The notes under the pieces were generated by a model. That model made no database searches. It was not told where the DNA came from and saw nothing but the letters and a program-made list of their open reading frames with translations. From a virus: 20,694 bases of DNA. Shown here in pieces: positions 378-20,585 of this stretch (the stretch's first letter is position 1; each line of letters opens with the position of its first letter). The position numbers and the translations under genes are program-made. The stretch is from positions 1 to 20,694 of the IMG/VR virus record IMGVR_UViG_3300025301_000156; one strand, 5' to 3'.

Positions 378-680
378 CTACACTTTCAAAGTATCTACTT
401 CTGACCGTAACGTGGTGACTGTTGAAGACAGATCTTTAATAGCTTCTATTAGTATACCTGTTAAATACTGGTACTCAACAGCTTTAGTAGCCTGATCATT
501 ATTCTGTGTGTGTACTACTTCAGGAATCACCCGCTCAACTTCTTGAGCAATCAAACCCATCCTCAAATCCGAGCCCTTATTTTCCGTGTCTTTCCAGGTG
601 AAGTTAACCCCTCGAAGAGCGTTCACTTTATCTAAAGCGTCTGGGATAGTCGTGATATTCTCTTTTAATCGGGCATCAGA
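378..680 (-). other. Peptidase_S74 (intramolecular chaperone) domain of the fibre
   Basis: The segment runs from S777 (codon 678-680) to the stop. The SDARLK hexapeptide puts Ser and Lys five residues apart, as in the catalytic dyad of self-cleaving S74 chaperones (endosialidase and Myrf types). The expected product is a mature fibre of 776 residues and a released chaperone of 100 residues. Confidence 0.82.
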
Positions 681-3008
681 CGACTCGTGATAAGTTCCAT
701 GCGTCCCTGAAACATCCCCAGAGTTATTTACAGTCAGTCTGGTAGCGCTGTTAGTGTTGTCGTAAAACCTCAGACCAGCGCCCCCAGAAAAGGTTATGGC
801 AGGGCTATTGGAGTTATCCCCCGCGTACATACCCATTCCTTCACCAAGCCCGGAATCCAAAAATATCTGCGAACTAGCCCCAGAAATCTCTATGGCGTAA
901 CCTGGGCTGGTAGTCCCAACACCAAGTTGTCCTATAACCACTAGCTCATCACCAGACTCATCCCAAAGTAGATACTTACCACTCGTAGCCCCAAAAAACT
1001 TGACATCATGCCCGGTATCATCAACACCTACCGTCAGGGTTCCCCTCTGCACAACACCATCAGCCGAGGTATCCCAATGCCAGTACCTACTGGCAGTGTC
1101 TCCGTACAATTTAAGATCGTAACCCTGATCATCTACCCCCACCAGAATCGAACCGTCAATCTGCATATTACCGTCTATATCAACAGCGTCTAGGTTAGAT
1201 GTACCGTCAATATCCATGTTTCCTGAGATATCCAGCTCCGTAGCGATCACCTTATCATTGAAAGTGGCGGCCCCAGCCGCGCTCATGTCCAGCGTAAGGG
1301 CGGTTATGGTACTCCCGCCGTCATTACCATTGATAATCAGGTCCTTGTCCTGTACGGCAGTCGCGATTACAAAGTCTGAGTTGCCATTCTTTGTCATCGT
1401 ACATATAGTTGTAGCGTCAACATTGAAGTGGAAATCAGCGCCCCCAGAGTCGAACACTATGTCTGAGGAGGCGTCGAGAGTTATGCCAGTACCGTCAACT
1501 TCAAAAGTCCCATCGGCTGTGATCTGTATGTTCGCATCCGTACCAGCAGCATCTACCGTAACAAGAGAAAAAGCCCCGTTAGTGGCGGCGGTCATGGTCA
1601 CGGTATCGCTGGAACTTGGCGTCATTACTATTGAATCATCAGTAATAACCGTGGATCCTACGGTAAAGTCAGTGGTAGCGTCTACAGTCCCGGCAAACGT
1701 TACGTTAGCACCACTAAAGGTAGCTGCCGTAGTCCCCGATGAACTGGATTTGATTAGCAGTTCACCACTATTGTTATTCAGTGTCCCAAAGAGTGTCCCA
1801 TCGTCCTTGAGGAATATATCAGCCCCACCAGCATCTAGAATAATATCCGTTCCCGCGTCTAGCTCTATGCCTCCAGCATCGGATAGAAGCTCGATAGAGC
1901 CCGTACCAGTACCTTGATCTGCGTGGAGTACGATAGTCTCGGACGTACCCCCGTCAGCCGTCAGGAGAAGAGCGTTTGCCCCATTAAGCCCAGACTTTAT
2001 GTTAATCCCGCCTACGTCAGAGAGTAGCTGTATTGATGACGCACCCTCTGTGGCCGCTGTACCCTGATCATTGAACAAGGTCATGGTAGAACTAGTGCCG
2101 CCGTCTACCGTCAGGTTAACGGCGTTAGCCAGGTTGGCAGTAGACCTTATCCCTATCCCACCCGCGTCAGACAGCAGAGATATAGACTCGGCTCCTTCTG
2201 TGACTGAAGTACCTTGGTCATTAAATATGGCAATAGAGCCTGTCGTGCCGCCGTCACTAGTGATATTCACCGCCTTGGCTAAGTTAGCTGTAGACCGAAT
2301 CCCAACACCACCAGCATCTGAGAGTATATTTATAGACTCGGCACCCTCGGTAACTGACGTACCTTGGTCAGCATGAATCTTGATCGTGCCACTTGTACCT
2401 GCGTTCTCTCGTAGATAGATAGCAGCGGCAGCGTCGTAGGTAGATAGAAGGTCTATATCTCCTGATGACGCGATATCAAAATCAGTTACATCGAAGTCAG
2501 CCGTTCCGTTTACATCTAATGTAGTAGTAACCGTCAGGATTCCTCCGACAGTTACAGTGGATGCCGCCGCGTTCGCACCGTTGGTTATGGTCAAGTAGTC
2601 AATAATAGTGCCCGCAGAAGCCTTATCTGAGCCTATGGCAAGGGTGTCTGAGGCAGAAGCCTGCATCCTCCACCCATCACCCGCATCATCCGCCTGATCC
2701 GCAAAGAAGTAGATAGGCGCAGCCGCACCTTCCACACCACGCACCTTTAGACTTGCGGTATCCACCCCCTTGGTGGTGATCTCGTCAGACCAGAGTATGT
2801 ACCTAACACTGGTGCCTGACGTTATCTTTATATCGTAGGTAGTATCAAGACTTGTCTCTGTAAATGACCAGGCACCGTTGCTATCCGTAGTGGTAGAGGT
2901 TTCCTGTGAAGTTGTTCCTGTTTCCAAAAGCGCAACGGTTGCCCCGTTAACAGGGTCTCCGTCATCCTGAAATAGCTTCCCGCTTAAATCAATATCAGTT
3001 ATAGCCAT
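378..3008 (-). CDS. Tail fibre/spike protein with C-terminal S74 intramolecular chaperone (876 aa)
   Basis: This is the receptor-binding fibre. Residues 1-75 form a Cna-B/carboxypeptidase-regulatory-like beta domain (GKLFQDDGDPVNGATVALLETG, GAWSFTET). A linker and a 50-residue repeat array follow (207-356 plus a shortened copy), with SDAGG and DGGT turns, then more Asp/Gly/Thr-rich triple-helix-like sequence. Two VGVDD-x-G-x-D units occur near 630-695. From S777 the sequence is SDARLKENI...MGLIAQEVE...YLTGILIEAIKDL, the Peptidase_S74 chaperone. It trims itself off by a Ser-Lys dyad (S777, K782) once the trimer folds. The ATG has a GGGAG site overlapping the upstream stop. A terminal coiled coil (IKDLSSTVTTLRSEVDTL) closes it. 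The array shows no enzyme domain. Confidence 0.88.
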   Translation of the reverse strand: MAITDIDLSGKLFQDDGDPVNGATVALLETGTTSQETSTTTDSNGAWSFTETSLDTTYDIKITSGTSVRYILWSDEITTKGVDTASLKVRGVEGAAAPIYFFADQADDAGDGWRMQASASDTLAIGSDKASAGTIIDYLTITNGANAAASTVTVGGILTVTTTLDVNGTADFDVTDFDIASSGDIDLLSTYDAAAAIYLRENAGTSGTIKIHADQGTSVTEGAESINILSDAGGVGIRSTANLAKAVNITSDGGTTGSIAIFNDQGTSVTEGAESISLLSDAGGIGIRSTANLANAVNLTVDGGTSSTMTLFNDQGTAATEGASSIQLLSDVGGINIKSGLNGANALLLTADGGTSETIVLHADQGTGTGSIELLSDAGGIELDAGTDIILDAGGADIFLKDDGTLFGTLNNNSGELLIKSSSSGTTAATFSGANVTFAGTVDATTDFTVGSTVITDDSIVMTPSSSDTVTMTAATNGAFSLVTVDAAGTDANIQITADGTFEVDGTGITLDASSDIVFDSGGADFHFNVDATTICTMTKNGNSDFVIATAVQDKDLIINGNDGGSTITALTLDMSAAGAATFNDKVIATELDISGNMDIDGTSNLDAVDIDGNMQIDGSILVGVDDQGYDLKLYGDTASRYWHWDTSADGVVQRGTLTVGVDDTGHDVKFFGATSGKYLLWDESGDELVVIGQLGVGTTSPGYAIEISGASSQIFLDSGLGEGMGMYAGDNSNSPAITFSGGAGLRFYDNTNSATRLTVNNSGDVSGTHGTYHESSDARLKENITTIPDALDKVNALRGVNFTWKDTENKGSDLRMGLIAQEVERVIPEVVHTQNNDQATKAVEYQYLTGILIEAIKDLSSTVTTLRSEVDTLKV
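1850..2390 (-). repeat. 150-bp repeats encoding fibre 50-residue units
   Basis: Three full units of exactly 50 codons (2390-2241, 2240-2091, 2090-1941) and a shortened fourth unit (from 1940) encode a common pattern: H/F-x-D-Q-G-T, then S-I-x-L-L-S-D-A-G-G, then A-x-x-L-T-x-D-G-G-T. Units 1 and 2 are closest. The DNA has diverged more than in the 436-aa gene, so these are older duplications. Confidence 0.85.
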
Positions 3009-8574: not shown

Positions 8575-8982
8575 TTATGAGTGTTTATCTTGCTCATGCT
8601 TTCGTAGAGAAGCCGTAGCGTTTGTGAGGCGAACGTGTTCCGCTACGTAGTCGCATTCCTTACAGGAAGCCTTTGCCATAGCATTAGGATTACTCGACTC
8701 TACGTTTGAAGTCCTAGATTCTACACACCACCGACATTCACAACTATCCGAAGGGGCTACCGGCAGCATACCTAACTTAGCCTTTTTAGTCACATAGTCA
8801 GGATTGCCCGGTACTCCTTTTATAGCCGTACCGATAGGAAATACTATGTCCCCTACGTTGTTACGACCTGGAGCATGACGATATAGAGTGGTCTTGGGTT
8901 GCCACGTATCTATATATTCCCATGAATAACCCTGTGAGACCAATTCTCGTCTAAGTTCCTGTCGCTCGGTGGTGGTTACCAT
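8575..8982 (-). CDS. Small zinc-binding-like head-module protein (135 aa)
   Basis: The first 75 residues are helical then extended (GYSWEYIDTWQPKTTLYRH). The C-terminal half carries a C-x-C-x2-C cluster (CECRWC), then C-x2-C (CKEC), and H-x4-H near the end (HEQDKH). Together these look like a zinc finger or ribbon, although the 18-residue gap between the second Cys of CKEC and the first His is longer than in a classic C2H2 finger. It follows the capsid gene by 10 nt, with a GAGGTAGGA purine-rich site before the ATG. A role in head completion or as a small DNA- or protein-binding factor is possible. I do not recognise the family. Confidence 0.72.
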   Translation of the reverse strand: MVTTTERQELRRELVSQGYSWEYIDTWQPKTTLYRHAPGRNNVGDIVFPIGTAIKGVPGNPDYVTKKAKLGMLPVAPSDSCECRWCVESRTSNVESSNPNAMAKASCKECDYVAEHVRLTNATASLRKHEQDKHS

Positions 8983-8992
8983 TCCTACCTCA

Positions 8993-9862
8993 CTATGTAC
9001 TTGTAGACGGTGCAGCAGCGTCGTAGGTCATTGCTGCGCCACGGCTATCATCAAGCTCAAATACTCCGTAGTCGGCAGTCATTACTACTTCCGTAGCCCT
9101 AAGAGACGCATCACGTTGACGTTCTGTATTAGTCTCGACCGACTTGAGAACCGCGAGTGCTGATTTATCGGCGATTACGCCAATCGCATCATCACTACTA
9201 TCTACAGACAGATTGCCGTCCTCAAATATTGGTACGCCGTTAAGAGGTCTGAGTCCACTGAAGAACTCACCGAGTAGATCCTCACTCCATCCCTTGGGAA
9301 CAGGATATGTTTGAGACGCAGTTACTGCCGTATTGGCAATGTCAAATACTGCGTTAGGATGTTGGAGAATATAAAGCTGAGTTCCGAACTTGTTAGCCTT
9401 AGCATAAGCAATTGCCGCTGCTACGTTAGCAAGTTTGAGTGTAGTACCGGCTGCACCAAGAGTATCACCGCCGTTAAGACCAGAGTACAGCGCGTGTACA
9501 TCGGTATCTTTCTTACGAGCCATACCGTCACCAAGTTGCCTGCCGACTATAGAGAATACATTGTCAGCAGCTTGTCTGACCAACTTGTCGGTCAGAATGA
9601 CCTTGGCCCCGACTTCCGCAGCCGTAAGGTCAACCGTGGTCATCCCGATATCTTCCTCGTCAACGATATCCTGTCCATCGGTCAGGTCAGATATAGTCAT
9701 CTGTCCGACCTTTGGTACCGTAACCTGCTTACTTCCTTTAGGAAGGTTAAAACTCTCTATCAGCGCCATAGCAGGAGCGTTATGCTCCTCTGTATATCTA
9801 CTCGCCGCAAGAATAATCTTCTGGGCATTTTCCAGATTGCCCGTAGTCGCTGCCTGAGCCAT
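8993..9862 (-). CDS. Major capsid protein, HK97-fold (289 aa)
   Basis: This protein forms the icosahedral shell. The sequence fits the HK97-fold phage capsid pattern: an N-terminal helix; the strand VTVPKVGQMTISDLTDGQDI, typical of the E-loop/P-domain start; a long spine helix about 92-125 (LTDKLVRQAADNVFSIVGRQLGDGMARKKDTDVHALYSGL); an A-domain region with YILQHPNAVFDIA; GVPIFEDGNL; and a closing strand TADYGVFELDDSRGAAM. Its length is close to that of compact phage capsid proteins, and no long delta or protease-cleaved domain is evident. The ribosome binding site is strong (AGGAGG, 7 nt before ATG), as expected for an abundant protein. It lies directly after a scaffold-like gene. The product call is fairly secure. 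The exact subfamily is not determined. Confidence 0.87.
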   Translation of the reverse strand: MAQAATTGNLENAQKIILAASRYTEEHNAPAMALIESFNLPKGSKQVTVPKVGQMTISDLTDGQDIVDEEDIGMTTVDLTAAEVGAKVILTDKLVRQAADNVFSIVGRQLGDGMARKKDTDVHALYSGLNGGDTLGAAGTTLKLANVAAAIAYAKANKFGTQLYILQHPNAVFDIANTAVTASQTYPVPKGWSEDLLGEFFSGLRPLNGVPIFEDGNLSVDSSDDAIGVIADKSALAVLKSVETNTERQRDASLRATEVVMTADYGVFELDDSRGAAMTYDAAAPSTST

Positions 9863-9882: not shown

Positions 9883-10650
9883 TTATGATAAACCCGCCGC
9901 TTTTCTCGCCGCAGCTTGTGCGCTCGACGATCTATCTCCAGCATTGTACCTATCCAGCCAGCCACCCTCATCAGCAGCCACCTCCGGGCTGCCCTGACTG
10001 TTATCAAGTGCCTGAGACGGAACCCTTGCCTGCTTGAATGATGCAAGCTCTGAGTCCCGTTTCCTATCCTCGGCCAGCTTCTTAGCTGCGCCTTCCATTG
10101 ATTGAGGATCATTGTAAGTCCTCAGAGTCGATAAATCGTCCATATCCAAATTAAACTTCTTGGCTAAATGTACTGCCGCCGCCATCTGACCCTGAAGGTG
10201 TTGTCCATACTGCTCGGCCTGCTGCATCAAGTCCTGATGTTGCTTCTGACTCTGCATATAGACATTAGCAGCCTGTTCGGCTTGCTCGGGTAAGTACCCG
10301 CTAGCCTCTAACTGCTGCTTATACGAATCCGCTTGGTTTTGTAACGCCGCCTGCTGTTGTACCTGAGCGTACTGAGCAGCGTCCTGCTGCATCTTAGTTA
10401 TCTGCTGAGGAGTATACGCGGGCGGTGTCTGTGGAGGAGGTTGATCTGGAAGAGCCGTAGGCACCGTAGGTGGAACTCCAGATGTAAGAGGCTGATTCCC
10501 AGATGGCTGCTCCTCAGTAGGAGTAGTATCTGTTTCCGCGTTAGGAACCTCAGTGAGATTATCCTGCGTAGTATCAGCGACAGGTTGTGTGTCCTCTGTA
10601 GTAGCAGGACTATCTGTTGCCGGTGCTTGGTCTAAGTTTTCAGTTACCAT
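9883..10650 (-). CDS. Probable capsid scaffolding protein (255 aa)
   Basis: The position directly before the major capsid gene and the composition are those of a phage scaffold. The N-terminus is acidic and Thr/Pro-rich (about 1-80, ending in a PPPQTPP stretch). A Gln-rich helical or coiled-coil middle follows (about 80-165; QQITKMQQDAAQYAQVQQQ and QSQKQHQDLMQQAEQYGQ). The C-terminal part ends GGWLDRYNAGD...AARKAAGL, a small charged helix of the kind scaffolds use to grip the shell. No protease domain is visible, so removal or retention after assembly cannot be judged. The ATG has AGGAGGG about 10 nt upstream, slightly long spacing. It stops 20 nt before the capsid ATG. Scaffold sequences diverge quickly, so the call rests on position and composition. 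Confidence 0.72.
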   Translation of the reverse strand: MVTENLDQAPATDSPATTEDTQPVADTTQDNLTEVPNAETDTTPTEEQPSGNQPLTSGVPPTVPTALPDQPPPQTPPAYTPQQITKMQQDAAQYAQVQQQAALQNQADSYKQQLEASGYLPEQAEQAANVYMQSQKQHQDLMQQAEQYGQHLQGQMAAAVHLAKKFNLDMDDLSTLRTYNDPQSMEGAAKKLAEDRKRDSELASFKQARVPSQALDNSQGSPEVAADEGGWLDRYNAGDRSSSAQAAARKAAGLS

Positions 10651-10706: not shown

Positions 10707-10736
10707 GAACCCTACCTCTATATAAGGTACTCAGAT

Positions 10737-13700
10737 CTAATAGTATCCGTATTTTTCAATAAGCCCTTTTAGATATGGATCCTTATTTCGCATTCCTTTT
10801 TGGGCTCTACTTCTTCCTCCTACCACATAAATTAGGTCGCTAGGTCCCTTTGTCCGAATATAATCTTTGGCCTCTGCCGGTTTATTTTGTCTGAGTAGCG
10901 ATTTATATGTGTCATACGCGTCTTCGACACCTAAATCTTCCGCTAGTATTCTTTCTACATTCCAATAGCCTGTAGCTTCTATATACTCCCTGTCCCGCCT
11001 AAGTTGCAGTTCATAGTCAGGAAGTGGCTTATCAGGACTCGCTTCATGCAAAGCCTTTATATCTTCTACGAATTGTGGACTGTACTGCTTTTTAAGGTAT
11101 TCCCTCCTATATTCACGTTCGTCCCAGTTAATCCCATATTCATCTTCAAGCGGGGTATATACATATGTATCATCGTAAGACCCCAATAAGGCCGTTGCCC
11201 ATTCCGAGTACCCTGACGATCCATCATCGGCAAACAATAGCCTGTTATATACATCACTAGCTTCATCATAAGGTCCATCTGGGTCCATATCACGAAAAGC
11301 CTTATTCTCTGCCGCTATCTTTTTAGCTTGTTCCTTTAGTAGATAGAACTCGGCGAATATAGCTGTTCGTTTCTCTCTGTAATGTCTGCCTGGTTCCTCC
11401 TTATCATTGTTAGACGCCTTCCAAGCTTCCTCTAACTTTTTGAGAAGGGTATTCCAATACTCATCTACCTGAGCATAATACCTACCTAACGCGGGGTTGA
11501 ATTTTATAGTGTCTTCTCGTTTCTTTCGAGAAGCTTCTGCGTATCCTGGAGCGCCTTTTACCAAGGCTTGTGTCTTTGGGTCCTTTGACCAAGATTCTTC
11601 AGGGGTATAGTCAAGATCTTTCTCACTCCATATACCAGACTCGTAACCGCGTATCCTATTTATCTCTTCTACCGTCTTACCCTCGAACATCTCAGGAACT
11701 TCTTCTCTACCAAGCCTTTCCATTCTCTCGCCTTCGGTCATCACGCTAGTGCGGAATCCAGCCTGAGAAGCAGCTTGCGCTATCGCGCCCTCGCCGTCTA
11801 GCTTACCTTGCACGACAAAAGGAAGGAGCGAGGTCCCCAGATGTTTGGCGATATCCGGCACAGAATCTATATGGTCATAAGGAAGTATGTTTATCTTACC
11901 TTTGGACAACCCCTCCCCTATAGCCCCTAGCACATTCACCCCAACCGCGCCACGGCTCATATATAGTTGTAGTATCGGATTGTCCATCATATTTGGAGTA
12001 AGGAATTTGTTTATGTCCCCTTTATATGTAGCTGCTATAGCATAAGATAGGAATTGTAATAGGGCTCGTTGTTGTCCTCCTGCCCCAATCCAATCATTAT
12101 TTATTAAGTACGCCATATGTTTCTTGCCACTCAGAGGATTAAGTCCCTTCTCTATGTCTTTCCAGGGCTTTCCAAGCGCTATTCCTGCTAGGGTATAAAC
12201 CATGCCCGCCCCAATGAGAAGTCGTGTTATATTCCTTAAAGACGCGGCCTGACGAGCCGTAATAGCACGTCCTGGCACCATATTAACTAACCCTCGTAGC
12301 GCGTCTGCCGTAACCGCCACAGTAGATCTAAGTAGACGGGGAGAAAACGCCAGCATGACAGACTCGACGCTCTGCTGTGCGGGACCGACTCCTAATGCTC
12401 TTGTGTCCAGTCCGCCAGTTAGATTCCTTATATAAGCAGCCAGCTCGGCATCAGATCCGTCCCAACTATCCTTATTTGCTTTCCATAGCATATTCCTACT
12501 AACACCTAGCATAGCGGAATACGACGCCTGGAATCTTCCTAGAGACTGCTTTTCTAATACCTTCGCCGCCCTTCGTGCCCCTTCACCACCAGGAACCTTA
12601 CCCAGTAGGGCTAAAGGAGATGCCCCACGCCCAGCTTGCATGGCGATAAACATTTCGTTAGACATCCCGGTAGGAATCCCTGCTGCGCTCATCTCGGCAA
12701 ACGAATCCAGATTATCCCTGACATATCGGCTGTAAACAGTGGGATCCAGGAAAGCCCTATAATGATACCCAGTGGCTTTCGCCCAAATAACGGGGTTTTC
12801 TGTCAACACGAAAAGCCCATGTATAAGAGGCGCGGCATAGTCAAGAGTAGCCGACATCATACGTGTTATGTTAACGAAGTTCACAAAGCCCCGACCTAAC
12901 CACCTAGCTACGTCCCCACCAGATCTAACTCCTCGTCTAGGGGTACTCTGTAAAGCCTCTTTTAGGAGATCCGCGTCCTCTTTGGGCATAAACCGCTTGT
13001 TCCATTCTCCTATAACTATCGCTTTATCGGCTTTACCGAATAACTCCCCAGGAGCATACTGCTTTGCTTTCGCATCATCCAACGCATTATTGTACCTATT
13101 TTTAGACAAGGTATAGGCCGATTCAGCCTTGTTTTTACGAGCAGTCGCGTTACGACGCTGCGTCGTAAGTTCTTTCCTCAACGTCCTTTCCGCCTCAGTA
13201 CTCGGCATCCCCTTACGCAGCCTTCCTCGTGGTACCCGTAAGCGATTAACTTCTCTTCTAGCTTTTGTTAGCTCTCGTGTTTTCTCAATCGCGTCATTAG
13301 TAATATCAGTCGATATTAACCTTGAAGGCTTTATAGATAGAGGCGCTAACGCGTCAGATAGCTGCTTATCTAGTATCTCTTTATACGACGCCCTGAGATG
13401 TAGTTCGAGAGTCCTATACGGACTGTTAGAGTAACGAATACCCATATCGAAGTAACCCACAGTAGCCTCTTCAAATACCCTGCGTAATTTAGGATTAGTC
13501 TTACCAAGAAGCTCTAGATTATCTATACTCTCGACCTGTCTAGGTACATAGAACCAACCATCTTTTGATCGCGTTCCTCTTGGAGCCAGCCCCCTTCTAA
13601 TACGTATCGCCTCCGCCTCATCCACCAATGTTAGGTAGTCTTTTATATACGCCTTTTCTTCTGGTAGCAGTTCAGACGCCCATCTAGGATCATCTGGACG

Positions 13701-16700
13701 AGAGAACACATCATTCCAAAGGTACTTAGTATTAGCGAAGAATCCTTGCGAGTTTATCCTAACCGGTTCCCAAGCAATGGTTTTAGATAGCGCGCCAAGC
13801 ATTTTAGGTACTACTCTTCCAGTAGCCTCACGACCACGCATAAATGGTCTCATGCCCCTTACATGACCCCCTAAGCCTCCGGCTAAACCCACCTCAACAG
13901 CCGAGTCTATAGCTATCTGTTGCCTATAATAGGCAACTAGTATTTTCCCTGTTTCAGTATCCATTGCCGCAGATGGGTTCACAAAAAACTGGGCGATCTG
14001 ACGTATGACCGGGGTAGTAATAGATCTTACCTCACGAGCAACATCCGTAATCTCCCTGAGATCGGCTAAGAATCGGGATCCTTCAGGTATATCGGCAAGC
14101 GGTTTATAACCCCCTGTAGGCCTCGTAGGGGGACTAGTGGGAGGAATTCCAGCACCCCCCGTAGTAGGTATTACTTTAGGAAGCTCCTTTGGTATCGCAG
14201 CGGGAGTATCAATAACCTCCCGTACAGTAGGCCGTGTGGCGATGGGAGGATCAGTAGCCGGTACTACCCGTTCGGCGGTAGGTGTGGTTGGAGTATAAAC
14301 CCTAGCTACTCGTGGGTTTAAGACTATAACCTGGTCTCCTCCTACAGCCCTAAAAAACTTATTATCAGTCGCTTTTACGATCTCGTCGCTATTGCGTATA
14401 GCCACAACATCGTAGTCTCTGGCGATTCTATCCCAAACGGATAGTTCTCCAGTAGTAATAACCTCTTCTAACAAATAACCATACTTATCCTTTACTCGGT
14501 CGTAATCCGACATAGAACCTAGCTCAAGTACCCTTGATATAGGGGATATCTCAAACTCAACTGGCGAAAGAGTCGTTACGACGTCCTCGTCCATAGACTT
14601 CATCCATTGTTGTTTATCGTAGTCAAAGAAGGACGTTCCTCCCATCCCCTCGTTTTCAGGAGTAGACGGAACAACCTTGCCCTTTATACTTTCCTCGTGT
14701 ATCTTGCTCCATCTTTCATCATCCAGAGAAAGATAAAGCCTATTCCCGGCAAACTTACCTACTTTAGGCCCTCTCCCCAAATCTCCTGTCCCATGTTTAG
14801 GTACTCTAGTCGGGTCAAAAGTCTCCCCTGCCTCCAGTCGAGCCTTTACTTCTGGAGTAGTAAAGTGCTTGAATCTACCGCCTGCTATTGTCGCTCCGGC
14901 TCGAGTAGGAGGGATTACCTCCTGCACTACCCGTTCGGTGGGAGGATCAGGCACATCATCCCAAGCTGACGCTCTAGCGCGGGCATTGAGAGCCTCAAAA
15001 TATTCGTCCTCACCATATTTTCGTATAAGCTCTGTTTCATAATCATCAACAATATTTTGAGATTGCTGATATGACGCAGATACGCGTTCTGTACTGGGCG
15101 TTTCTTCCATGATATCTTGGAATATGGCTCGGGTCTGTCTAGCAAGTGGATGATTATTAGGCACCTCTGAAATACTTAATTCATCTACCAGTCTATGTCT
15201 CTCAACGGAACTCTTTGCTCGGTTGTACCGCTTCCAAGCCAAGTTGTTATATATGTCACCTATTATTTTCTCAGCTTCTTTACTCCCTAATCTCATATCT
15301 GGATAATAAGCAGCAGTACGACTCCATGATTCTGAGACCTTTTTTATTACCTCCCTAATGTCTTCCTTTGTAGCAGGCCCCTTTAACGCGGACGGTTTTA
15401 GTCTCCCGATTGCCGCTTTAAGATGTGTGGCGGCGTCTGCCTCCCCAATAGCGTCACGATCTTTATATAAGCCCTCTAATTTCTGGAACTCCTGATCTGT
15501 AAGTACCCCTAGGGACTTGGGTGCGCTAGGTGCGGGCGTGGTGGGTACAACATCAGTAGCCGGTACTACCCGTGCGGTGGGCACATCAGCCAATCTTACC
15601 GCCTCTGCCGGTTTTCTAACGGCCTCTCCAGTAGCGGTACGTATGTTGAAGTAGGGCTTACGTACTTCATTTATCTCTATCGTCCCTTTGCCTGTTACCT
15701 TACCGGCACCCATAGTGCCATCCGCTGCTTCAAAAACAACGTCGTCACCAATCCGTACAGCCTGCCTGAGGGATAAAGATCCGTAATTAGGTCCTGTCTG
15801 GAGATTATACCCAGTTATATCCGTCCCCACTTCTCCCAAAAGGGGCTGCTGTTGTGCCTGTCTGGTAGGTCGTGCGGTAGGTCCTTTCCCAATTCCAGGT
15901 CCCTGTTCTTCTAGTTTCCCAGATACTCCCAGCCATTCATTCACTTCCCTTGGAGACTCTACATCTTTTGGCTCAGGTAAAGATTCTTCTACTTGTTTCA
16001 GGGCATTACTAATTCTTCTGTTCTCTACCGTACCTAATCTAAACAGAACATCTTCTCTACCTTCTCCTACATATGCGGCCTTGTTAACCCAGCCTTTTTT
16101 GTACACCCCTGGAATGGGACTCTCATCTACTACCCCATCAAAAGGCGCCCACTGTTCTGGCCCTAGGTGTTTAGCTTCCCCACCTCTACCTGTGCGACGG
16201 TAGAAGGGCTGGAACTTCCCATCAGGAAGTCTAACAACAACCATATCTCTGCCACGATACTTTATGACATCATCTACATAGATAGAAAAACCACTCATTC
16301 CCGGTAATTCACTAAAGCCTTCTTCCCGCATAGCGGTGGGAGGAGGGGGTTTAGGTGCGACGGGTCGTGTGCCTATTGGGACTAGCCCTTTTGGCGTTGG
16401 AGGTAGTCCTAAAACATTTCGGCCCGCGGATCCTAGTGTCTTAGCTATTCCCTGTTCATATACCTCAAGAGGGGTTAGAGCCTCTCTAGTGGCACCCATT
16501 AGGTATCGCTGGAAGGAAGGGGTCTTTGTTGCGGCCTTTCGTGCTTGAAGACCCCCCCTAATCGCCTTTGCAGGTGGTATAAGAAACCAAGGAAGCTCTT
16601 CAAGCATCCCCCTTACATATGGAGGCATCTTATATTGTTCTTCTCTTATTTTCCTACGTTCCCGTTCGTTTAGAAGCTTTCCTGTAGCCGCTTCTCTACG

Positions 16701-17321
16701 TTCCGCTTCCTCCCGTACATTTTTAGCCATTATGGTTCTCTGACCTAACGCGGGCCAATTAAAAGCTTCTGTTACAGGATCAGCCCCAGCAAAAGCGCCA
16801 AGGACGGCCATCGGGTCAATTCCTCCTTCTGGCTTTAAATAAGCATCGAAGGTGGGCTTCCACTTGTCATCTTCATACTTCATAGGAAAGTATTTAGTTC
16901 GCCCGCTAACGGTTGGCTTCACTGCGTATTCATGTATAGCTTCTAGTGGCTTAAACGCTAGAGGAGCTATTTTAGGAGCTAGTCGAGCCCACGGGGGACC
17001 GGCCTCTAACACTTCTCCTATACTACCTAACACCCCTGGTCCCTGTTCGGGACTCACAGAGGGAGGCACCATAGTAGGGGTGAAGGTACTACTAATATCT
17101 CCAACTATAGGATCAAATGGGGTAGTAGCTTGGGGCATGAAAGGAGCCGCCTGAGTAGGGGCCGCGGGAGGGGTAGTAGATCTGTTACGCCAAGCCTCTT
17201 TAGCCTCGTCAGTAAATCCGCCTGTAGCCTCATCTATAGGATTAGGCACATTTCGTAGGCTAGGATAATACTTATTAGCTATCTGCCAATGTTCGAGAAG
17301 AGTTTTCTCTCCGTTAGGCAT
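10737..17321 (-). CDS. Giant phage polyvalent-type protein (2194 aa) with ART-like and LPD38-like regions
   Basis: One uninterrupted 6.6-kb frame. Visible regions: a Pro/Ala-rich N-terminus (45-110); a beta-rich segment about 335-445 (QPFYRRTGR, GWVNKAAYV); an SH3-like strand-rich segment 515-577; a Pro linker with RVVPATD near 580; a helical region 600-790; an ADP-ribosyltransferase-like domain 815-1010 (H819, Y863, Q997); a long Pro/Thr linker to 1080; a basic coiled coil 1337-1418; a region 1476-1760 resembling LPD38 of large polyvalent proteins, with one hydrophobic helix at 1697-1717; and a charged helical C-terminus of about 400 residues. Polyvalent proteins combine many domains and are thought to enter the host with phage or plasmid DNA. 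No tape-measure-like heptad pattern dominates. Start coupling is by TAATG. The name rests on architecture and motif reading without a profile search; packaging and ejection are inferred. Confidence 0.8.
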   Translation of the reverse strand: MPNGEKTLLEHWQIANKYYPSLRNVPNPIDEATGGFTDEAKEAWRNRSTTPPAAPTQAAPFMPQATTPFDPIVGDISSTFTPTMVPPSVSPEQGPGVLGSIGEVLEAGPPWARLAPKIAPLAFKPLEAIHEYAVKPTVSGRTKYFPMKYEDDKWKPTFDAYLKPEGGIDPMAVLGAFAGADPVTEAFNWPALGQRTIMAKNVREEAERREAATGKLLNERERRKIREEQYKMPPYVRGMLEELPWFLIPPAKAIRGGLQARKAATKTPSFQRYLMGATREALTPLEVYEQGIAKTLGSAGRNVLGLPPTPKGLVPIGTRPVAPKPPPPTAMREEGFSELPGMSGFSIYVDDVIKYRGRDMVVVRLPDGKFQPFYRRTGRGGEAKHLGPEQWAPFDGVVDESPIPGVYKKGWVNKAAYVGEGREDVLFRLGTVENRRISNALKQVEESLPEPKDVESPREVNEWLGVSGKLEEQGPGIGKGPTARPTRQAQQQPLLGEVGTDITGYNLQTGPNYGSLSLRQAVRIGDDVVFEAADGTMGAGKVTGKGTIEINEVRKPYFNIRTATGEAVRKPAEAVRLADVPTARVVPATDVVPTTPAPSAPKSLGVLTDQEFQKLEGLYKDRDAIGEADAATHLKAAIGRLKPSALKGPATKEDIREVIKKVSESWSRTAAYYPDMRLGSKEAEKIIGDIYNNLAWKRYNRAKSSVERHRLVDELSISEVPNNHPLARQTRAIFQDIMEETPSTERVSASYQQSQNIVDDYETELIRKYGEDEYFEALNARARASAWDDVPDPPTERVVQEVIPPTRAGATIAGGRFKHFTTPEVKARLEAGETFDPTRVPKHGTGDLGRGPKVGKFAGNRLYLSLDDERWSKIHEESIKGKVVPSTPENEGMGGTSFFDYDKQQWMKSMDEDVVTTLSPVEFEISPISRVLELGSMSDYDRVKDKYGYLLEEVITTGELSVWDRIARDYDVVAIRNSDEIVKATDNKFFRAVGGDQVIVLNPRVARVYTPTTPTAERVVPATDPPIATRPTVREVIDTPAAIPKELPKVIPTTGGAGIPPTSPPTRPTGGYKPLADIPEGSRFLADLREITDVAREVRSITTPVIRQIAQFFVNPSAAMDTETGKILVAYYRQQIAIDSAVEVGLAGGLGGHVRGMRPFMRGREATGRVVPKMLGALSKTIAWEPVRINSQGFFANTKYLWNDVFSRPDDPRWASELLPEEKAYIKDYLTLVDEAEAIRIRRGLAPRGTRSKDGWFYVPRQVESIDNLELLGKTNPKLRRVFEEATVGYFDMGIRYSNSPYRTLELHLRASYKEILDKQLSDALAPLSIKPSRLISTDITNDAIEKTRELTKARREVNRLRVPRGRLRKGMPSTEAERTLRKELTTQRRNATARKNKAESAYTLSKNRYNNALDDAKAKQYAPGELFGKADKAIVIGEWNKRFMPKEDADLLKEALQSTPRRGVRSGGDVARWLGRGFVNFVNITRMMSATLDYAAPLIHGLFVLTENPVIWAKATGYHYRAFLDPTVYSRYVRDNLDSFAEMSAAGIPTGMSNEMFIAMQAGRGASPLALLGKVPGGEGARRAAKVLEKQSLGRFQASYSAMLGVSRNMLWKANKDSWDGSDAELAAYIRNLTGGLDTRALGVGPAQQSVESVMLAFSPRLLRSTVAVTADALRGLVNMVPGRAITARQAASLRNITRLLIGAGMVYTLAGIALGKPWKDIEKGLNPLSGKKHMAYLINNDWIGAGGQQRALLQFLSYAIAATYKGDINKFLTPNMMDNPILQLYMSRGAVGVNVLGAIGEGLSKGKINILPYDHIDSVPDIAKHLGTSLLPFVVQGKLDGEGAIAQAASQAGFRTSVMTEGERMERLGREEVPEMFEGKTVEEINRIRGYESGIWSEKDLDYTPEESWSKDPKTQALVKGAPGYAEASRKKREDTIKFNPALGRYYAQVDEYWNTLLKKLEEAWKASNNDKEEPGRHYREKRTAIFAEFYLLKEQAKKIAAENKAFRDMDPDGPYDEASDVYNRLLFADDGSSGYSEWATALLGSYDDTYVYTPLEDEYGINWDEREYRREYLKKQYSPQFVEDIKALHEASPDKPLPDYELQLRRDREYIEATGYWNVERILAEDLGVEDAYDTYKSLLRQNKPAEAKDYIRTKGPSDLIYVVGGRSRAQKGMRNKDPYLKGLIEKYGYY
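12042..12896 (-). other. LPD38-like region of the giant protein (residues ~1476-1760)
   Basis: The region is mostly helical, beginning NFVNITRMMSATLDYAAPL. It includes RFQASYSAMLGVSRNMLW, a Gly-rich AYIRNLTGGLDTRALG, the segment ESVMLAFSPRLLRSTV, and a hydrophobic helix (LLIGAGMVYTLAGIALG, near 1701-1717). This order, with an FSPR-like motif and one hydrophobic segment near the end, is what I associate with the large polyvalent protein-associated domain LPD38. The biochemical role of LPD38 is not known. The assignment is from memory of the family pattern and needs a profile search. Confidence 0.4.
14241..14280 (-). repeat. Inter-domain linker repeat, copy 3 (ERVVPATD)
   Basis: This copy follows the ART-like domain (residue about 1015) and encodes TAERVVPATDPP. 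Its 20 bp at 14251-14270 are identical to 15553-15572. With copy 2 it brackets the ART-like domain, as expected if domains are exchanged through shared linker DNA. Confidence 0.7.
14292..14879 (-). other. Putative ADP-ribosyltransferase-like domain (residues ~815-1010 of the giant protein)
   Basis: The segment opens with KHFTT (H819), followed by a helix and a Gly, as in ART folds that begin with an H(F/Y)TS-type strand. RLYLSLDDERW (Y863) matches the second conserved strand with its Tyr and a trailing Trp. Next comes V.FEI....VLEL, then WDRIARDYDVVAI. The final strand is GGDQVIVLNPRVARV, where Q997 sits at the usual Glu/Gln position before an NP/DP strand. This H-Y-[E/Q] order is the signature of ART-fold enzymes of the KptA/polyvalent types. 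With Gln instead of Glu, mono-ADP-ribosylation, 2'-phosphotransferase-like activity or an inactive domain are all possible. Confidence 0.5.
14922..14950 (-). repeat. Inter-domain linker repeat, copy 2 (ERVVQE)
   Basis: This copy encodes PPTERVVQEVIPPT just before the ART-like domain (residue about 795). It shares the actacccgttcgg core and the adjacent gggaggatcag with the copy near 14241-14280, although the order of these parts differs. Confidence 0.6.
15550..15590 (-). repeat. Inter-domain linker repeat, copy 1 (RVVPATD)
   Basis: The linker between the SH3-like segment and the helical region (residue about 580) is encoded by DNA sharing a 20-bp identical stretch (15553-15572) with 14251-14270. 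A related shorter copy lies near 14922-14950. The three copies are about 215-220 codons apart. Confidence 0.7.
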
Positions 17322-17662
17322 TAGTAAAATCGTCTCACTGAGGGAGCTAACCTAGACGTTGTGCCTCCTGGTCTGAGACGAGGACTTAGAGAAGAGTACC
17401 TCTCAGTCCAAGGGTACTTACCTAGATAGTCGTGAAAGGACATTGGTGGTTCCTGCCCCAAGCGCATAGCCCTACCCAACTCCCCCTCATACTGGTTCAT
17501 TACGTTGCCGTACTGACCTGACCAGTATTGCTGGGCGGCTGGAGAATATCCTCCGCCAAAGGGAGACGCAGCAGAAGGACCCGCTCCGAACGGTTCCGAG
17601 CTATAGTACGCGGCCCTGGGCTCATGTGGTAACCACTGTGAAAAATCGTTTTCTTGCGGCAT
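17321..17662 (-). CDS. Hypothetical small virion-region protein (113 aa)
   Basis: The protein is short and rich in Gly, Ser, Pro and Tyr. A helical stretch from about residue 43 (AAQQYWSGQYGNVMNQYEGELG) is followed by FHDYLGKYPW and YSSLSPRLRPG. It has a basic C-terminus. The order helix, then F..YL, then a short Pro/Arg tail loosely resembles the C-terminal helical parts of the two preceding proteins. The start has a modest AAGGTGAT ribosome binding site. Its TAA overlaps the ATG of the giant gene (TAATG), and the giant gene has no clear Shine-Dalgarno of its own. Translation of the giant protein therefore probably depends on ribosomes finishing here. Function is unknown. Confidence 0.7.
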   Translation of the reverse strand: MPQENDFSQWLPHEPRAAYYSSEPFGAGPSAASPFGGGYSPAAQQYWSGQYGNVMNQYEGELGRAMRLGQEPPMSFHDYLGKYPWTERYSSLSPRLRPGGTTSRLAPSVRRFY

Positions 17663-17683
17663 ATATCACCTTACCTATTATAC

Positions 17684-18994
17684 TTAGTACCAAGTACCTT
17701 CAAGACTAGGGTCGAGGTACTCCCAATCTGCTGGCTCGTTAAAAGTAGGATTAGGAATAAATGGTTCGGGTATGGGATCATACCCAGTACCCCAGCCAGG
17801 TGGTAGGGGTACATCGTCTACTGGTGGTTGATACGTTGGTGGTGTGGACGGTGGTGTGAGCTTACCCCAGCCAGGTGGTAGGGGTACATCGTCTACTGGT
17901 GGTTGATACGTTGGTGGTGTGGACGGTGGTGTGAGCTTACCCCAGCCAGGTGGTAGGGGTACATCGTCAACTGGTGGTTGATACGTTGGTGGTGTGGACG
18001 GTGGTGTGAGCTTACCCCAGCCAGGTGGTAGGGGTACATCGTCTACTGGTGGTTGATACGTTGGTGGTGTGGACGGTGGTATGAAAGGCACGTTTGCTCT
18101 ACCGCCCGTACCCCAGCCAGGTGGTAGGGGTACATCGTCCACTGGTGGTTGATACGTTGGTGGTGTTATTGCCTCATGGCCCACGAAGCCAGGTGGTAGG
18201 GGCACGTCATCGACGTTTGCTGCTATACCATTGACCGCACCAACCCCCGTAGGAGCCCCGTTAGCTGCTACTTCTGATGGTATAGTGGGCGTACTACCTA
18301 CATAGTAATCTGGATTCACTAACGCTTCCTGCCCAGTAAGATGTCCTAGCCAATCAACGTTAGTAGCAAATGGATTTTCCGCAAAGAACCTGTTTTGGGC
18401 ACGTTGTAATCCCGCCTGACGCATCCTCCCGTAAATAGACCCCGCCCTAGGATCGAATGTAGCCAGCCCGAGTATATTTCTAACGGACTCGTCCACTCCT
18501 AACGGGCCGGTTTCGTACCACCTATCATACGCGGCCTGAGCGTCCCTTGGATCGATCCCTATAGATTCTAGGGCTTCGGGTCTACCCTGACCGTATGTTC
18601 TAGCGACATTTATCATTTGCTCCCACTCAGGCCGGGCTACCCCAGGCACCCCCTGCTGACCATAAAACCTGCTGCCGCCCTCGACTCCATCTTCTCCCAT
18701 GAGCCACTTTTGGAACCCCTCCTCCGATCTACCCGCAGCAGGAAAGGACATTTGATACTGGCCCATAAGCGGATCTTGTAACCTAGATACCAGACGTTGG
18801 TGTAAGTCACTGCTCTCTAACGATGGGAACGCCGCCCTAGCGGCCATACCGTATAGGCGTTCGAGTCCCACATCCTGCCAAGGATCTATTCCATGAGCTA
18901 ACGTGGGTTCAGTAGCACCCCGCCCAAGTCCGTAATTAGGTCCTGTGTCGGTCCATTCCCACTCGCCTGATTGTTGATTCCACTGATAAGGCAC
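17684..18994 (-). CDS. Proline-rich tandem-repeat virion-region protein (436 aa, GTG start)
   Basis: The family is not recognised. The N-terminal 230 residues form an aromatic, helical domain that resembles the preceding 391-aa protein (M191 begins MRQAGLQRAQNRFFAE). Residues about 260-402 are a low-complexity tail of repeats built on DDVPLPPGW, spaced by KLTPPSTPPTYQPP. A 30-residue acidic/aromatic tail follows. The start is GTG (18992-18994), overlapping the upstream TAG, with a clear GGAGG 6 nt before it. No ATG start fits better. Such a Pro-rich array is likely extended and may bind other proteins or span the virion wall. That is inference. There is no signal peptide or membrane segment. 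Confidence 0.75.
   Translation of the reverse strand: MPYQWNQQSGEWEWTDTGPNYGLGRGATEPTLAHGIDPWQDVGLERLYGMAARAAFPSLESSDLHQRLVSRLQDPLMGQYQMSFPAAGRSEEGFQKWLMGEDGVEGGSRFYGQQGVPGVARPEWEQMINVARTYGQGRPEALESIGIDPRDAQAAYDRWYETGPLGVDESVRNILGLATFDPRAGSIYGRMRQAGLQRAQNRFFAENPFATNVDWLGHLTGQEALVNPDYYVGSTPTIPSEVAANGAPTGVGAVNGIAANVDDVPLPPGFVGHEAITPPTYQPPVDDVPLPPGWGTGGRANVPFIPPSTPPTYQPPVDDVPLPPGWGKLTPPSTPPTYQPPVDDVPLPPGWGKLTPPSTPPTYQPPVDDVPLPPGWGKLTPPSTPPTYQPPVDDVPLPPGWGTGYDPIPEPFIPNPTFNEPADWEYLDPSLEGTWY
17790..18216 (-). repeat. 75-bp tandem repeat array inside the 436-aa gene
   Basis: Units begin on the plus strand at 17790, 17865, 17940 and 18015, each 75 bp (25 codons). The next copy begins at 18111, after a 21-bp insertion and a diverged end. 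A shortened sixth copy of the core lies near 18186-18216. The first three units are nearly identical. The main difference is the third base of one valine codon before the DD pair, seen as GTA, GTT and GTG in different copies. All copies stay in frame and encode the DDVPLPPGW-type motif. Confidence 0.95.
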
Positions 18995-20169
18995 TATAAG
19001 CCTCCTTTTGTTGGGTCCGTAGCGCTAGGCGTAGCTGCCCACTTCCCGCCTACATTCTCACTAAGCCAAGCGGCAAATCCTCTCCTATCCTCGTCTTCTG
19101 CCCATAGCTGCTCTTTATAAAATCTATCATATAGTCTATCTAGACCGCTCGTCCTCATCTGATTATACGATCCTTTAGGATCCGAGGCCCCCGGCTTTCC
19201 GCCTGTTATATTGCCCACAGCCATCGCCGCGTAGTATTCGTTACTTCTTCCCTGGCCTAAAGGACTAGGATCATATATATCCAAAATAATCCTATTCCTA
19301 AATGGTCGGGAAAGAGGATCGTACTCCAGAGAGTTTGCCGCCGTGGTAAACACTCTTTTATTACCCTCTGTTAGTCCTTCGGAACCCAGCTTTACCAGAT
19401 ACTCCCAGTTATCCTTCTGAGAATCCTGATCGTAAAACTCCTCGGGCGATTTTTGATACGACTCCATAAGCCATCCAGGCCATTCGTATCTGTTATCTTC
19501 GGGGCTGCCGCGTTGGCCGTATCCAGTAGATGCTTCTCCTGCCTCGGTATTAAACTCTTTCGGTCTATTAAGATACCTTTGTAAATACCATCTACCACGA
19601 GACGGTCCATAACTCAGTTCCAGCCTAGATCTCATCATAGGCGCGTTAGCATTAGCGCCTAAGTACTTCTGGGCTATAGCATCATACGCGTTAGGGGCGG
19701 TAGCCCCATAAACACCCTCTGGTACATTCTCTATTAACTTTTTAATACCCTGTGCTGTGATTGTCGTAGGTGTAAGCGGACTTTCGGCTTCTTCTCCTTC
19801 CCCCATAGGTGCTGCCAGAGCCGCTTCTACTTGGGATTTTTCTGCTTCAGCGGCTCTTCTAGCCGCGCTAGGAATAGGTATTGCCCTGGGGTCCATGAAC
19901 TCGTGGGGTAAAGGTACCTCTCCCTCTTGGGTGACGTCCCACATACTAGTCCCTTGTCCTATCTGCTTATAAGAAACGGGAGGAAGAACTTCCTGTTGCA
20001 GGTTAGGCATAGTAGGAGCAAGGCTATCTTCAGCCTTATTTAGGAGCCGTAACTCTGCCCATATTTCTCCTGTACTAACACCAAAAGCCTTAGATAGCTC
20101 TAATACTTGTTTATCTAGATGGGTACTAAAGTCAGCTACTTTGAAGCTTTCCGAAGGACGTACCGGCAT
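18994..20169 (-). CDS. Hypothetical virion-associated protein, likely paralogue of the next gene product (391 aa)
   Basis: No known domain is recognised. Residues 1-40 form a predicted helix (DKQVLELSKAFGVSTGEIWAELRLL). A Pro-rich stretch (about 50-150) follows, including GEVPLPHEF, which recalls the VPLPPG repeats of the next protein. The C-terminal half is aromatic and helical. From about residue 308 it reads PLG...S, then MRTSGLDRLYDRFYKE (from M338), ending in an FAAWL segment. The 436-aa neighbour has the same order (PLG...S, MRQAGLQRAQNRFFAE, then WL), which suggests duplication and divergence. The ATG is preceded by AGGGGA at good spacing. The TAG stop overlaps the next GTG start by 1 nt (TAGTG), implying coupled translation. 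A packaged virion protein is a positional inference. Confidence 0.75.
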   Translation of the reverse strand: MPVRPSESFKVADFSTHLDKQVLELSKAFGVSTGEIWAELRLLNKAEDSLAPTMPNLQQEVLPPVSYKQIGQGTSMWDVTQEGEVPLPHEFMDPRAIPIPSAARRAAEAEKSQVEAALAAPMGEGEEAESPLTPTTITAQGIKKLIENVPEGVYGATAPNAYDAIAQKYLGANANAPMMRSRLELSYGPSRGRWYLQRYLNRPKEFNTEAGEASTGYGQRGSPEDNRYEWPGWLMESYQKSPEEFYDQDSQKDNWEYLVKLGSEGLTEGNKRVFTTAANSLEYDPLSRPFRNRIILDIYDPSPLGQGRSNEYYAAMAVGNITGGKPGASDPKGSYNQMRTSGLDRLYDRFYKEQLWAEDEDRRGFAAWLSENVGGKWAATPSATDPTKGGL

Positions 20170-20174
20170 TTTAC

Positions 20175-20585
20175 TTATCCCCTAAACGAGGCTTCTGGGA
20201 ACGAGGCCATAAGAGCCCGAGCCGCTTGTTTAGCCCTGTTCTTTCTGCTGGATTGTTCTACTCTTACCATGCCCTCCAAATCAGTGTTTACTTTCTGGTT
20301 AGCCGCCTTCGACGCCATCATGGCTGCTACTGGCGGAGGCGCTCCTGCCTTCATGGCCTGTAGGTATTCGGGATCAGGGCCTTTAGGTCCTGGTGTATTG
20401 GGGAGTTTCCCCTGTTTCGCCAGCTCTGCCAGTTCGATCAGCTTGGGGTCTATATTACCAGGCCTTCCCGGCGCGCCCTGCCCCATCATCTGCTGTACGA
20501 ACGGAGGAGTAACCCCAGTCATAATATCCTGTGGCATAGATCCAAAGGCTTTAATAAGATCTTGTTCCTGCTTTTTAGTAGGCAT
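20175..20585 (-). CDS. Hypothetical small virion-region protein (136 aa)
   Basis: I do not recognise this family. The protein has a short charged N-terminus and a Gly/Pro/Met-rich middle (QQMMGQGAPGRPG, then PNTPGPKGPDPEY). The C-terminal third is basic and helical, rich in Arg, Lys and Ala. There is no signal peptide or membrane segment. Its ATG follows the upstream stop by 2 nt, with a GAGAGGG purine run as ribosome binding site. It ends 5 nt before the next gene, whose Shine-Dalgarno (AGGGGA) lies in this gene's last codons. It sits first in a run of Pro/Gly-rich genes leading to the giant protein gene, so a virion-associated role is likely but inferred from position only. Confidence 0.7.
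   Translation of the reverse strand: MPTKKQEQDLIKAFGSMPQDIMTGVTPPFVQQMMGQGAPGRPGNIDPKLIELAELAKQGKLPNTPGPKGPDPEYLQAMKAGAPPPVAAMMASKAANQKVNTDLEGMVRVEQSSRKNRAKQAARALMASFPEASFRG

What the first reader, a model, noticed from the sequence alone, without database searches (positions are those of the whole stretch)
10737..17321. 2194-aa polyvalent-type protein encoded just before the capsid genes
A single 6.6-kb frame sits between a set of small unknown genes and the scaffold/capsid pair. It combines Pro-rich linkers, an SH3-like segment, an ART-like domain, a coiled coil and an LPD38-like region. Polyvalent proteins (established family concept) are proposed to enter the host with the genome. If this one is packaged in the head, it is a multi-effector delivered at infection. 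Several segments (335-445, 600-790 and the 400-residue C-terminus) match nothing I can name.
Basis: partly seen in the sequence, partly recalled or inferred. Interest (0 to 1): 0.78.

Follow-up and report, generated by a model that had tools for sequence, protein, structure and literature searches.

The report
Giant cysteine-free phage ejection-cargo protein
A virus of uncultured marine bacteria carries a 2194-residue protein beside its shell genes that looks like a swappable cargo shot into the host with the viral DNA; the cell-delivery idea fits, the named effector domains are mostly unproven, and the striking clue is that the protein contains not one cysteine.

Summary
The 2194-aa frame is real (minus strand, 10737-17321), between portal and scaffold/capsid. 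It matches no Pfam, PHROG or PDB profile. In 60 of 60 related loci the same slot holds a large frame (1439-2935 aa when complete). The C-terminal ~715 residues are a shared core; the N-terminal part is a mosaic. One relative carries a C5 DNA methyltransferase there, four carry HExxH motifs, and one has a true LPD38 core. Cysteine is excluded: 0 of 2195 codons in frame against 43-79 in the other five frames. The 60 relatives hold three cysteines in 73,800 residues, one of them the methyltransferase's catalytic Cys. Large T7, N4 and P22 ejection proteins and 13 LPD38 giants of known phages (one shown in virions by mass spectrometry) are also Cys-free; P1 DarB and T4 Alt are not. Two near-identical phages have swapped the whole cassette, ending 13 bases after its stop codon. 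Best reading: a podovirus ejection protein of polyvalent type, with exchangeable cargo and a C-terminal packaging/translocation core. The ART call rests on an H-Y-D motif only; LPD38 membership of this protein was tested and not met; packaging itself is inferred, not shown.

The parts
10737..17321 (-). 2194-aa ejection/polyvalent-type protein (Q)
17097..17321 (-). N-terminal ~75 residues, shared with the LPP of the near-identical phage L003/G001 (46% over the first 48)
16290..16433 (-). proline-rich linker, residues 297-344
15882..16379 (-). module of residues 315-480, relative only in L029 (31%)
14922..15644 (-). module of residues 560-800, about 70% identical to L018/L021 LPP
14127..14939 (-). 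candidate ART domain, residues 795-1065, H819/Y863/D996 motif; no homologue found
14079..14216 (-). proline-rich linker, residues 1036-1081
13176..13760 (-). middle domain, residues about 1188-1382, found in 11 LPP frames; lies about 250 residues after the HExxH module in L050, L052, L070
13068..13196 (-). long helix / probable coiled coil, residues 1376-1418
10740..12884 (-). conserved C-terminal core, residues 1480-2194, mostly helical
10740..11054 (-). C-terminal ~105 residues, retained even where the core is replaced by LPD38 (L011): candidate head-docking signal
17321..17662 (-). 113-aa Cys-free protein; a gene of this size (108-115 aa) lies directly upstream of the LPP in the relatives' genomes inspected
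17684..18994 (-). 436-aa Cys-free protein with DDVPLPPGW repeats, part of the swapped cassette
18994..20169 (-). 391-aa Cys-free protein, part of the swapped cassette
10725..20190 (-). exchangeable cassette: block replaced between this phage and G001/L003 (only short patches at 70-78% remain), flanks 98.6% and 99.5% identical
9883..10650 (-). 255-aa scaffold-like protein (by position and composition)
8993..9862 (-). 289-aa major capsid protein

Best explanation
The gene encodes a podovirus ejection protein of the polyvalent kind. Inferred working: the last ~105 residues dock the protein into the growing head through the scaffold, portal or capsid; the helical C-terminal core (1480-2194) does the job that LPD38 does in other podoviruses, being held inside the head and passing out through the tail ahead of or with the DNA, perhaps forming part of the channel into the cell; the N-terminal two thirds, joined by proline-rich linkers, is replaceable cargo that acts in the host at once (in relatives a DNA methyltransferase or a metallopeptidase-like domain; here possibly an ADP-ribosyltransferase). 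Cysteine is excluded because the protein must cross a narrow channel and an oxidising extracytoplasmic space without forming disulfides. Shown here: slot, core/cargo structure, cassette exchange, cysteine exclusion, core replacement by LPD38 in L011. Inferred: packaging, ejection order, docking role, enzyme activity.
For: Slot filled in 60/60 loci. Core homologous across separately aligned groups, hhalign 98.9-100%, core profile in 53/60 loci. Cargo differs: C5 DNA methylase 5.9e-21 in L006; HExxH in L029, L050, L052, L070, with L050/L052/L070 sharing one module; lethal-factor-type match in L050 only E=0.0086, below cut-off. L011, MCP 90% identical, has a true LPD38 (3.9e-17) in the same gene and keeps the family's C-terminal ~105 residues (profile built without it, 6e-14), which 12 LPD38 proteins of other phages, JC1 gp69 and T7 gp15/gp16 lack. 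Cys codons 0/2195 in frame, 43-79 in other frames; family 3 Cys in 73,800 residues, the L006 one sitting in the methylase PC motif. Controls: T7 gp15/16, N4 vRNAP/gp51/gp52, P22 gp7/16/20 have 0 Cys; 25 other large T7/N4/P22 proteins average 0.94%, 2 lack Cys. 12 LPD38 giants of known phages 0 Cys in 28,274 aa; JC1 gp69 (LPD38, 4515 aa) 0 Cys and in virions by MS with 51 peptides (PMC9144972). HTVC034P and ct8d5349 encode their LPD38 protein after internal virion protein B, as T7 gp16. No tape-measure-like gene seen in six relatives' contigs. Foldseek of the core model lists large polyvalent/LPD38 proteins at probability 0.85-0.96.
Against: No virion proteomics for this family. No enzyme domain proved in this protein. 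Scaffold (0%) and capsid (0.10%) of the family are also nearly Cys-free, and N4 gp56/gp57 and the HTVC026P tape measure lack Cys, so cysteine exclusion alone does not prove ejection. Structure matches have low global TM-scores (0.15-0.25). Profile-profile tests do not link the core to LPD38. The only host lead is Chloroflexota, many of which lack an outer membrane, so the periplasm argument may need restating; Gram-positive Bacillus phage Palmer's LPD38 protein is nevertheless Cys-free.
Confidence: 0.72

Rival explanations
1. A purely structural ejection protein, like T7 gp16: it builds the DNA channel, and the long variable N-terminal part is structural or tuned to host envelopes, not enzymatic cargo.
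For: No enzyme profile matches in this protein; long helices in the core model; LPD38 proteins lie in the gp16 position in HTVC034P and ct8d5349; T7 gp16 and P22 gp16 are also Cys-free.
Against: Relatives carry a DNA methyltransferase and metallopeptidase-like modules in the same gene; H-Y-D motif in 795-1065; size varies twofold and N-terminal parts are often unrelated while capsids stay about 80-93% identical.
Confidence: 0.2
2. A minor head protein that stays in the particle (head morphogenesis or MuF-like minor capsid protein), cysteine-poor only because virion proteins of this family are.
For: Slot lies between portal and scaffold, where Microcystis phage Mae-JY09 has a head-morphogenesis protein; scaffold and capsid are also Cys-poor.
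Against: Other structural genes of the same phages do hold cysteine: portal about 0.3-0.65%, adaptor slot 0.85%, +1 gene 3.4%; no MuF match; core replaced by LPD38 in L011, and an LPD38 giant is a DarB-like, virion-borne protein in JC1.
Confidence: 0.05
3. A tail tape-measure protein.
For: Large, helical and Cys-free; the HTVC026P tape measure is also Cys-free.
Against: Wrong place (between portal and scaffold); no tape-measure profile; structure matches to tape measures have probability 0.33 or less against 0.85-0.96 for polyvalent proteins; length varies twofold among phages with nearly the same capsid and tail genes, and the cassette is swapped alone.
Confidence: 0.02

Closest known systems
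Phage-type polyvalent proteins with LPD38 (PF18857), e.g. Burkholderia phage JC1 gp69, Vibrio phage 1.232.O, Bacillus phage Palmer gp20
   Same: Very large, late-gene context, several in short-tailed phages, C-terminal core plus variable N-terminal parts (enzymes in several), no cysteine; one member of the present family has a true LPD38 in the same slot.
   Different: This protein's core is not detectable as LPD38 by Pfam or profile-profile comparison, no enzyme is proven in it, and it sits upstream of scaffold and capsid instead of among or after the tail genes.
T7 gp16 / P22 gp16 ejection proteins
   Same: Cys-free, large, mosaic, in a short-tailed-phage-like gene set without a recognised tape measure.
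   Different: No sequence similarity found; position upstream of scaffold; size up to 2935 aa; swappable enzymatic cargo in relatives.
N4 virion RNA polymerase
   Same: Giant Cys-free protein delivered with the genome; Cys absence already linked to entry in the literature (PMC2784036, PMC3715699, PMC3915230).
   Different: No polymerase domain found; different core.
P1 DarB and T4 Alt
   Same: Head-borne injected proteins acting on restriction or host RNA polymerase.
   Different: Delivered through contractile tails and not Cys-free (9 and 3 cysteines); T4 Alt belongs to the R-S-E class of ARTs (PMC5512222).

Membership tests
Phage-type polyvalent protein | large multidomain protein, often over 2000 aa | tested here: met
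   2194 aa; distinct modules with different distributions along the chain
Phage-type polyvalent protein | encoded with late genes of a portal-terminase packaging phage | tested here: met
   terminase and portal upstream on identical contig L002 (by position and synteny), scaffold and capsid downstream
Phage-type polyvalent protein | recognised polyvalent domains (ART, MPTase, LPD, methylase) in this protein | tested here: inconclusive
   none by Pfam, NCBIfam or PHROGs; ART triad motif only; relatives have C5 methylase and LPD38
Phage-type polyvalent protein | packaged in the virion and injected | not testable with these tools
   needs virion proteomics; indirect support from cysteine exclusion
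LPD38 (PF18857) | profile match over the curated cut-off | tested here: not met
   profile-profile probability 0.1-0.9%; structure search lists an LPD38 protein at probability 0.89
Tox-ART-HYD2 ADP-ribosyltransferase | H in strand 1, Y in strand 2, D in strand 5 (PMC5512222) | tested here: inconclusive
   H819, Y863, D996 in fitting local motifs; no homologue or fold support
Podovirus ejection protein (gp16-like) | short-tailed-type gene set without tape measure | tested here: inconclusive
   no tape-measure-like gene among the frames of six relatives' contigs, by inspection only; virion form unknown
Podovirus ejection protein (gp16-like) | leaves the head on infection | not testable with these tools
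   no isolate
Podovirus ejection protein (gp16-like) | cysteine-free, as all large ejection proteins checked here (an observed correlate, not an established criterion) | tested here: met
Tape-measure protein | location among tail genes, tape-measure profile or fold | tested here: not met

The most novel reading that the evidence does not exclude
Exclusion of cysteine is a general sequence signature of proteins ejected by short-tailed phages, so that virion-delivered effectors can be recognised from sequence alone; and this phage family keeps a cargo cassette between portal and scaffold that is exchanged whole, with a ~105-residue C-terminal tag that loads either of two different core types (its own, or LPD38) into the head.
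Probability: 0.4. Interest if true: 0.72.

Novelty: new variant of a known kind. Interest (0 to 1): 0.55.

Why it matters
Which phage proteins enter the host with the genome is usually known only from proteomics of cultured phages. A frame-specific absence of cysteine, with a residual one kept in a catalytic motif, would let injected proteins be picked out in uncultured phages. The exchangeable cassette beside the scaffold gene is a natural library of early effectors against host defences, and the conserved C-terminal segment is a testable candidate for the signal that loads them into the head.

Tried and rejected
Pfam, PHROGs and PDB on the whole protein, and NCBIfam, Pfam and PHROGs on family members or slices: nothing significant for this protein. 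ART: tblastn against phages and plasmids gave only E=3-9 matches, IMG/VR only the same phage, phmmer against PDB nothing, single-sequence AlphaFold pLDDT 38. LPD38 membership: hhalign with a 4-member and then a 13-member LPD38 alignment, both negative. PDB fold search of the core: nothing. Regex search for the methylase missed it because the motif reads PVCKNF; found by its single cysteine and confirmed by Pfam. Tape measure and MuF-like minor capsid protein considered and rejected. Sulphur saving or base composition as the cause of missing cysteine rejected: methionine is normal (2.1%), neighbouring genes hold up to 3.7% Cys, and the other five frames of the same DNA have 43-79 Cys codons. 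E-values of the iterated local profile are inflated because members train it; the claim of a common core rests on comparison of separately aligned groups.

Full report
What is there. The window is a 20,694-bp virus record with its main genes all on the minus strand. An identical, separately assembled contig (L002) extends it upstream and shows terminase and portal, named by position and synteny (100% over 10,378 bp). In reading order the genes are terminase, portal (621 aa), 136 aa, 391 aa, 436 aa, 113 aa, the 2194-aa protein, a 255-aa scaffold-like protein, the 289-aa capsid protein (PF25209, 3.5e-9), several small proteins, 424-aa and 694-aa proteins that look like adaptor and nozzle by position, and an 876-aa fibre with an S74 chaperone. 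The 2194-aa frame has no significant match to Pfam, PHROGs, NCBIfam or PDB sequences (whole; slices against Pfam and PHROGs).

The slot is conserved, the protein is not. The capsid protein has 544 relatives in IMG/VR, the best 80 fetched being 79-100% identical. In all 60 loci with usable sequence upstream, the gene before the scaffold is a frame of this kind; those complete or nearly so run from 1439 to 2935 aa. Searching with pieces shows a conserved C-terminal core, residues about 1480-2194. Separately aligned groups of relatives match the window's group in this region at 98.9-100% hhalign probability, and the core profile is found in 53 of the 60 loci; four of the seven without it are short fragments of 244-324 aa. 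The rest is patchy: 1-75 in L003, 315-480 in L029, 560-800 in L018/L021 at about 70% identity, 1188-1382 in 11 frames, and 800-1060 in no other phage.

Cargo in relatives. The LPP (large protein in this slot) of L006 contains a C5 DNA methyltransferase at 475-785 (PF00145, 5.9e-21, over the curated cut-off). L050, L052 and L070 share an HExxH module just before the middle domain (43-61% identity over about 1500 residues; L050 matches the lethal-factor-type peptidase family only at E=0.0086, below cut-off), and L029 has another HExxH. L011, whose capsid is 90% identical to the window's, has a genuine LPD38 domain (3.9e-17) in this gene. A profile of the last ~110 residues built without L011 and its relatives still finds L011 (6e-14) but none of 12 LPD38 proteins from other phages, JC1 gp69, T7 gp15 or gp16, or 50 shuffled controls. 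So within this family the core type has been exchanged while the C-terminal tail was kept, which suggests that the tail is what the head-assembly machinery recognises (inference).

Cassette exchange. The window phage and G001/L003 are 99.5% identical over 9.8 kb from scaffold to fibre and 98.6% over 2.9 kb of terminase, portal and the 136-aa gene, but the block between is replaced, apart from a 369-bp patch at 78% around the 113-aa gene and the start of the LPP and a few further short patches. The right-hand breakpoint lies 13 bases after the LPP stop codon; the left lies near the end of the 136-aa gene. L055 and L061 show the same thing: 96.4% identity from the last bases of the LPP onward, and only scattered weak matches before it. 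L002 spans both junctions of the window phage, so they are not an artefact of one assembly.

No cysteine. The gene has no TGT or TGC codon among 2195, while the other five frames of the same DNA hold 43-79 each. At the 0.94% rate of large non-ejected T7, N4 and P22 proteins about 20 would be expected. Across the 60 loci the LPP slot has 3 cysteines in 73,800 residues: two lie in a probably over-extended start of L056 and one, C531 of L006, lies in the PVCKNF motif of the methyltransferase, where the catalytic cysteine belongs. The 113-, 436- and 391-aa neighbours have none either, while portal, adaptor and the gene after the capsid do. In controls, T7 gp15 and gp16, P22 gp7, gp16 and gp20, and N4 vRNAP, gp51 and gp52 have none; small T7 gp6.7 and gp14 have one each. 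Twelve LPD38 proteins of known phages have none in 28,274 residues. JC1 gp69, an LPD38 protein of 4515 aa, has none and was found in CsCl-purified virions with 51 unique peptides (PMC9144972). P1 DarB has 9 and T4 Alt 3, so the rule seems to follow short-tail delivery and not merely packaging in a head. The literature notes the absence of cysteine for N4-type vRNAPs and links it to entry (PMC2784036, PMC3715699, PMC3915230); I found no statement of it for polyvalent proteins in PMC5512222 ('cysteine' has 0 occurrences there) or for ejection proteins in PMC8954989 (0 occurrences). Limits: the family's scaffold (0%) and capsid (0.10%) are also Cys-poor, and two large non-ejected N4 proteins lack Cys.

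Structure. AlphaFold2 on residues 1100-2194 with 40 aligned sequences gives mean pLDDT 70, with the last ~280 residues mostly at 80-96 and nearly all helical. Against predicted viral structures the named matches with probability above 0.8 include an LPD38 protein, two other large polyvalent proteins and one helicase-domain protein, but global TM-scores are low. Nothing in PDB matches. Sequence profiles do not connect the core with LPD38. I therefore say it works like an LPD38 protein, in the sense that it fills the same place, and not that it is one.

The ART claim. Residues 795-1065 contain H819, Y863 and D996 in local motifs (KHFTT, LYLSLDD, GGDQVIVLNP) that fit the H-Y-D triad described for polyvalent ARTs (PMC5512222; positions). 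No homologue was found and the single-sequence model is uninformative. I put the ART at about even odds.

Mechanism. The relatives' contigs show no tape-measure-like gene among their frames, and in HTVC034P and ct8d5349 LPD38 proteins occupy the T7 gp16 position after internal virion protein B. The best reading is a short-tailed phage whose ejection proteins are encoded between portal and scaffold: the C-terminal tail docks the protein in the head, the core holds and threads it, and the N-terminal cargo acts in the cell. Only the first-level facts (slot, modules, exchange, cysteine exclusion) are shown; packaging, ejection and enzyme function are inferred.

Host. The capsid protein has three relatives in 84,980 genomes, all in Chloroflexota MAGs at 61-62% identity. 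All three contigs have a portal-like frame before the capsid gene; L130 also has the +1, adaptor-like and nozzle-like genes and, downstream, a frame that looks like a cellular ECF sigma factor, so the element seems to be a degraded or domesticated provirus there; no LPP core was found. This points to Chloroflexota as hosts, with the caveat that binning can err.

Noticed in passing
L130, L131, L132 (Chloroflexota MAG contigs): A remnant of this phage family, with portal and capsid genes (and in L130 also adaptor- and nozzle-like genes) but no LPP, sits in three Chloroflexota genomes with the same reverse-strand NHL-repeat-like gene between portal and capsid; looks like a domesticated or degraded provirus and hints at the host.
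   Followed up: partly
window 17684-18994: The 436-aa protein has tandem DDVPLPPGW...TPPTYQPP repeats, a Pro-rich array of five or more copies inside the exchangeable cassette.
   Followed up: no
window 8575-8982 and homologues: The 135-152-aa protein directly after the capsid gene is unusually cysteine-rich (about 3.4% across 60 loci), the opposite of its neighbours; possibly metal-binding.
   Followed up: no
L081 4857-9176: The LPP of L081 has a weak P-loop kinase (AAA_17, E=0.0014, below cut-off) match at 1304-1399.
   Followed up: no
G004 contig, locus L095 13213-15360: A further 715-aa cysteine-free protein is encoded upstream of the terminase genes, possibly another ejected protein.
   Followed up: no
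window 378-3008: The fibre gene carries an S74 intramolecular chaperone (PF13884) and a carboxypeptidase-regulatory-like N-terminal domain; internal repeats show up as offset matches between the window and G001.
   Followed up: no
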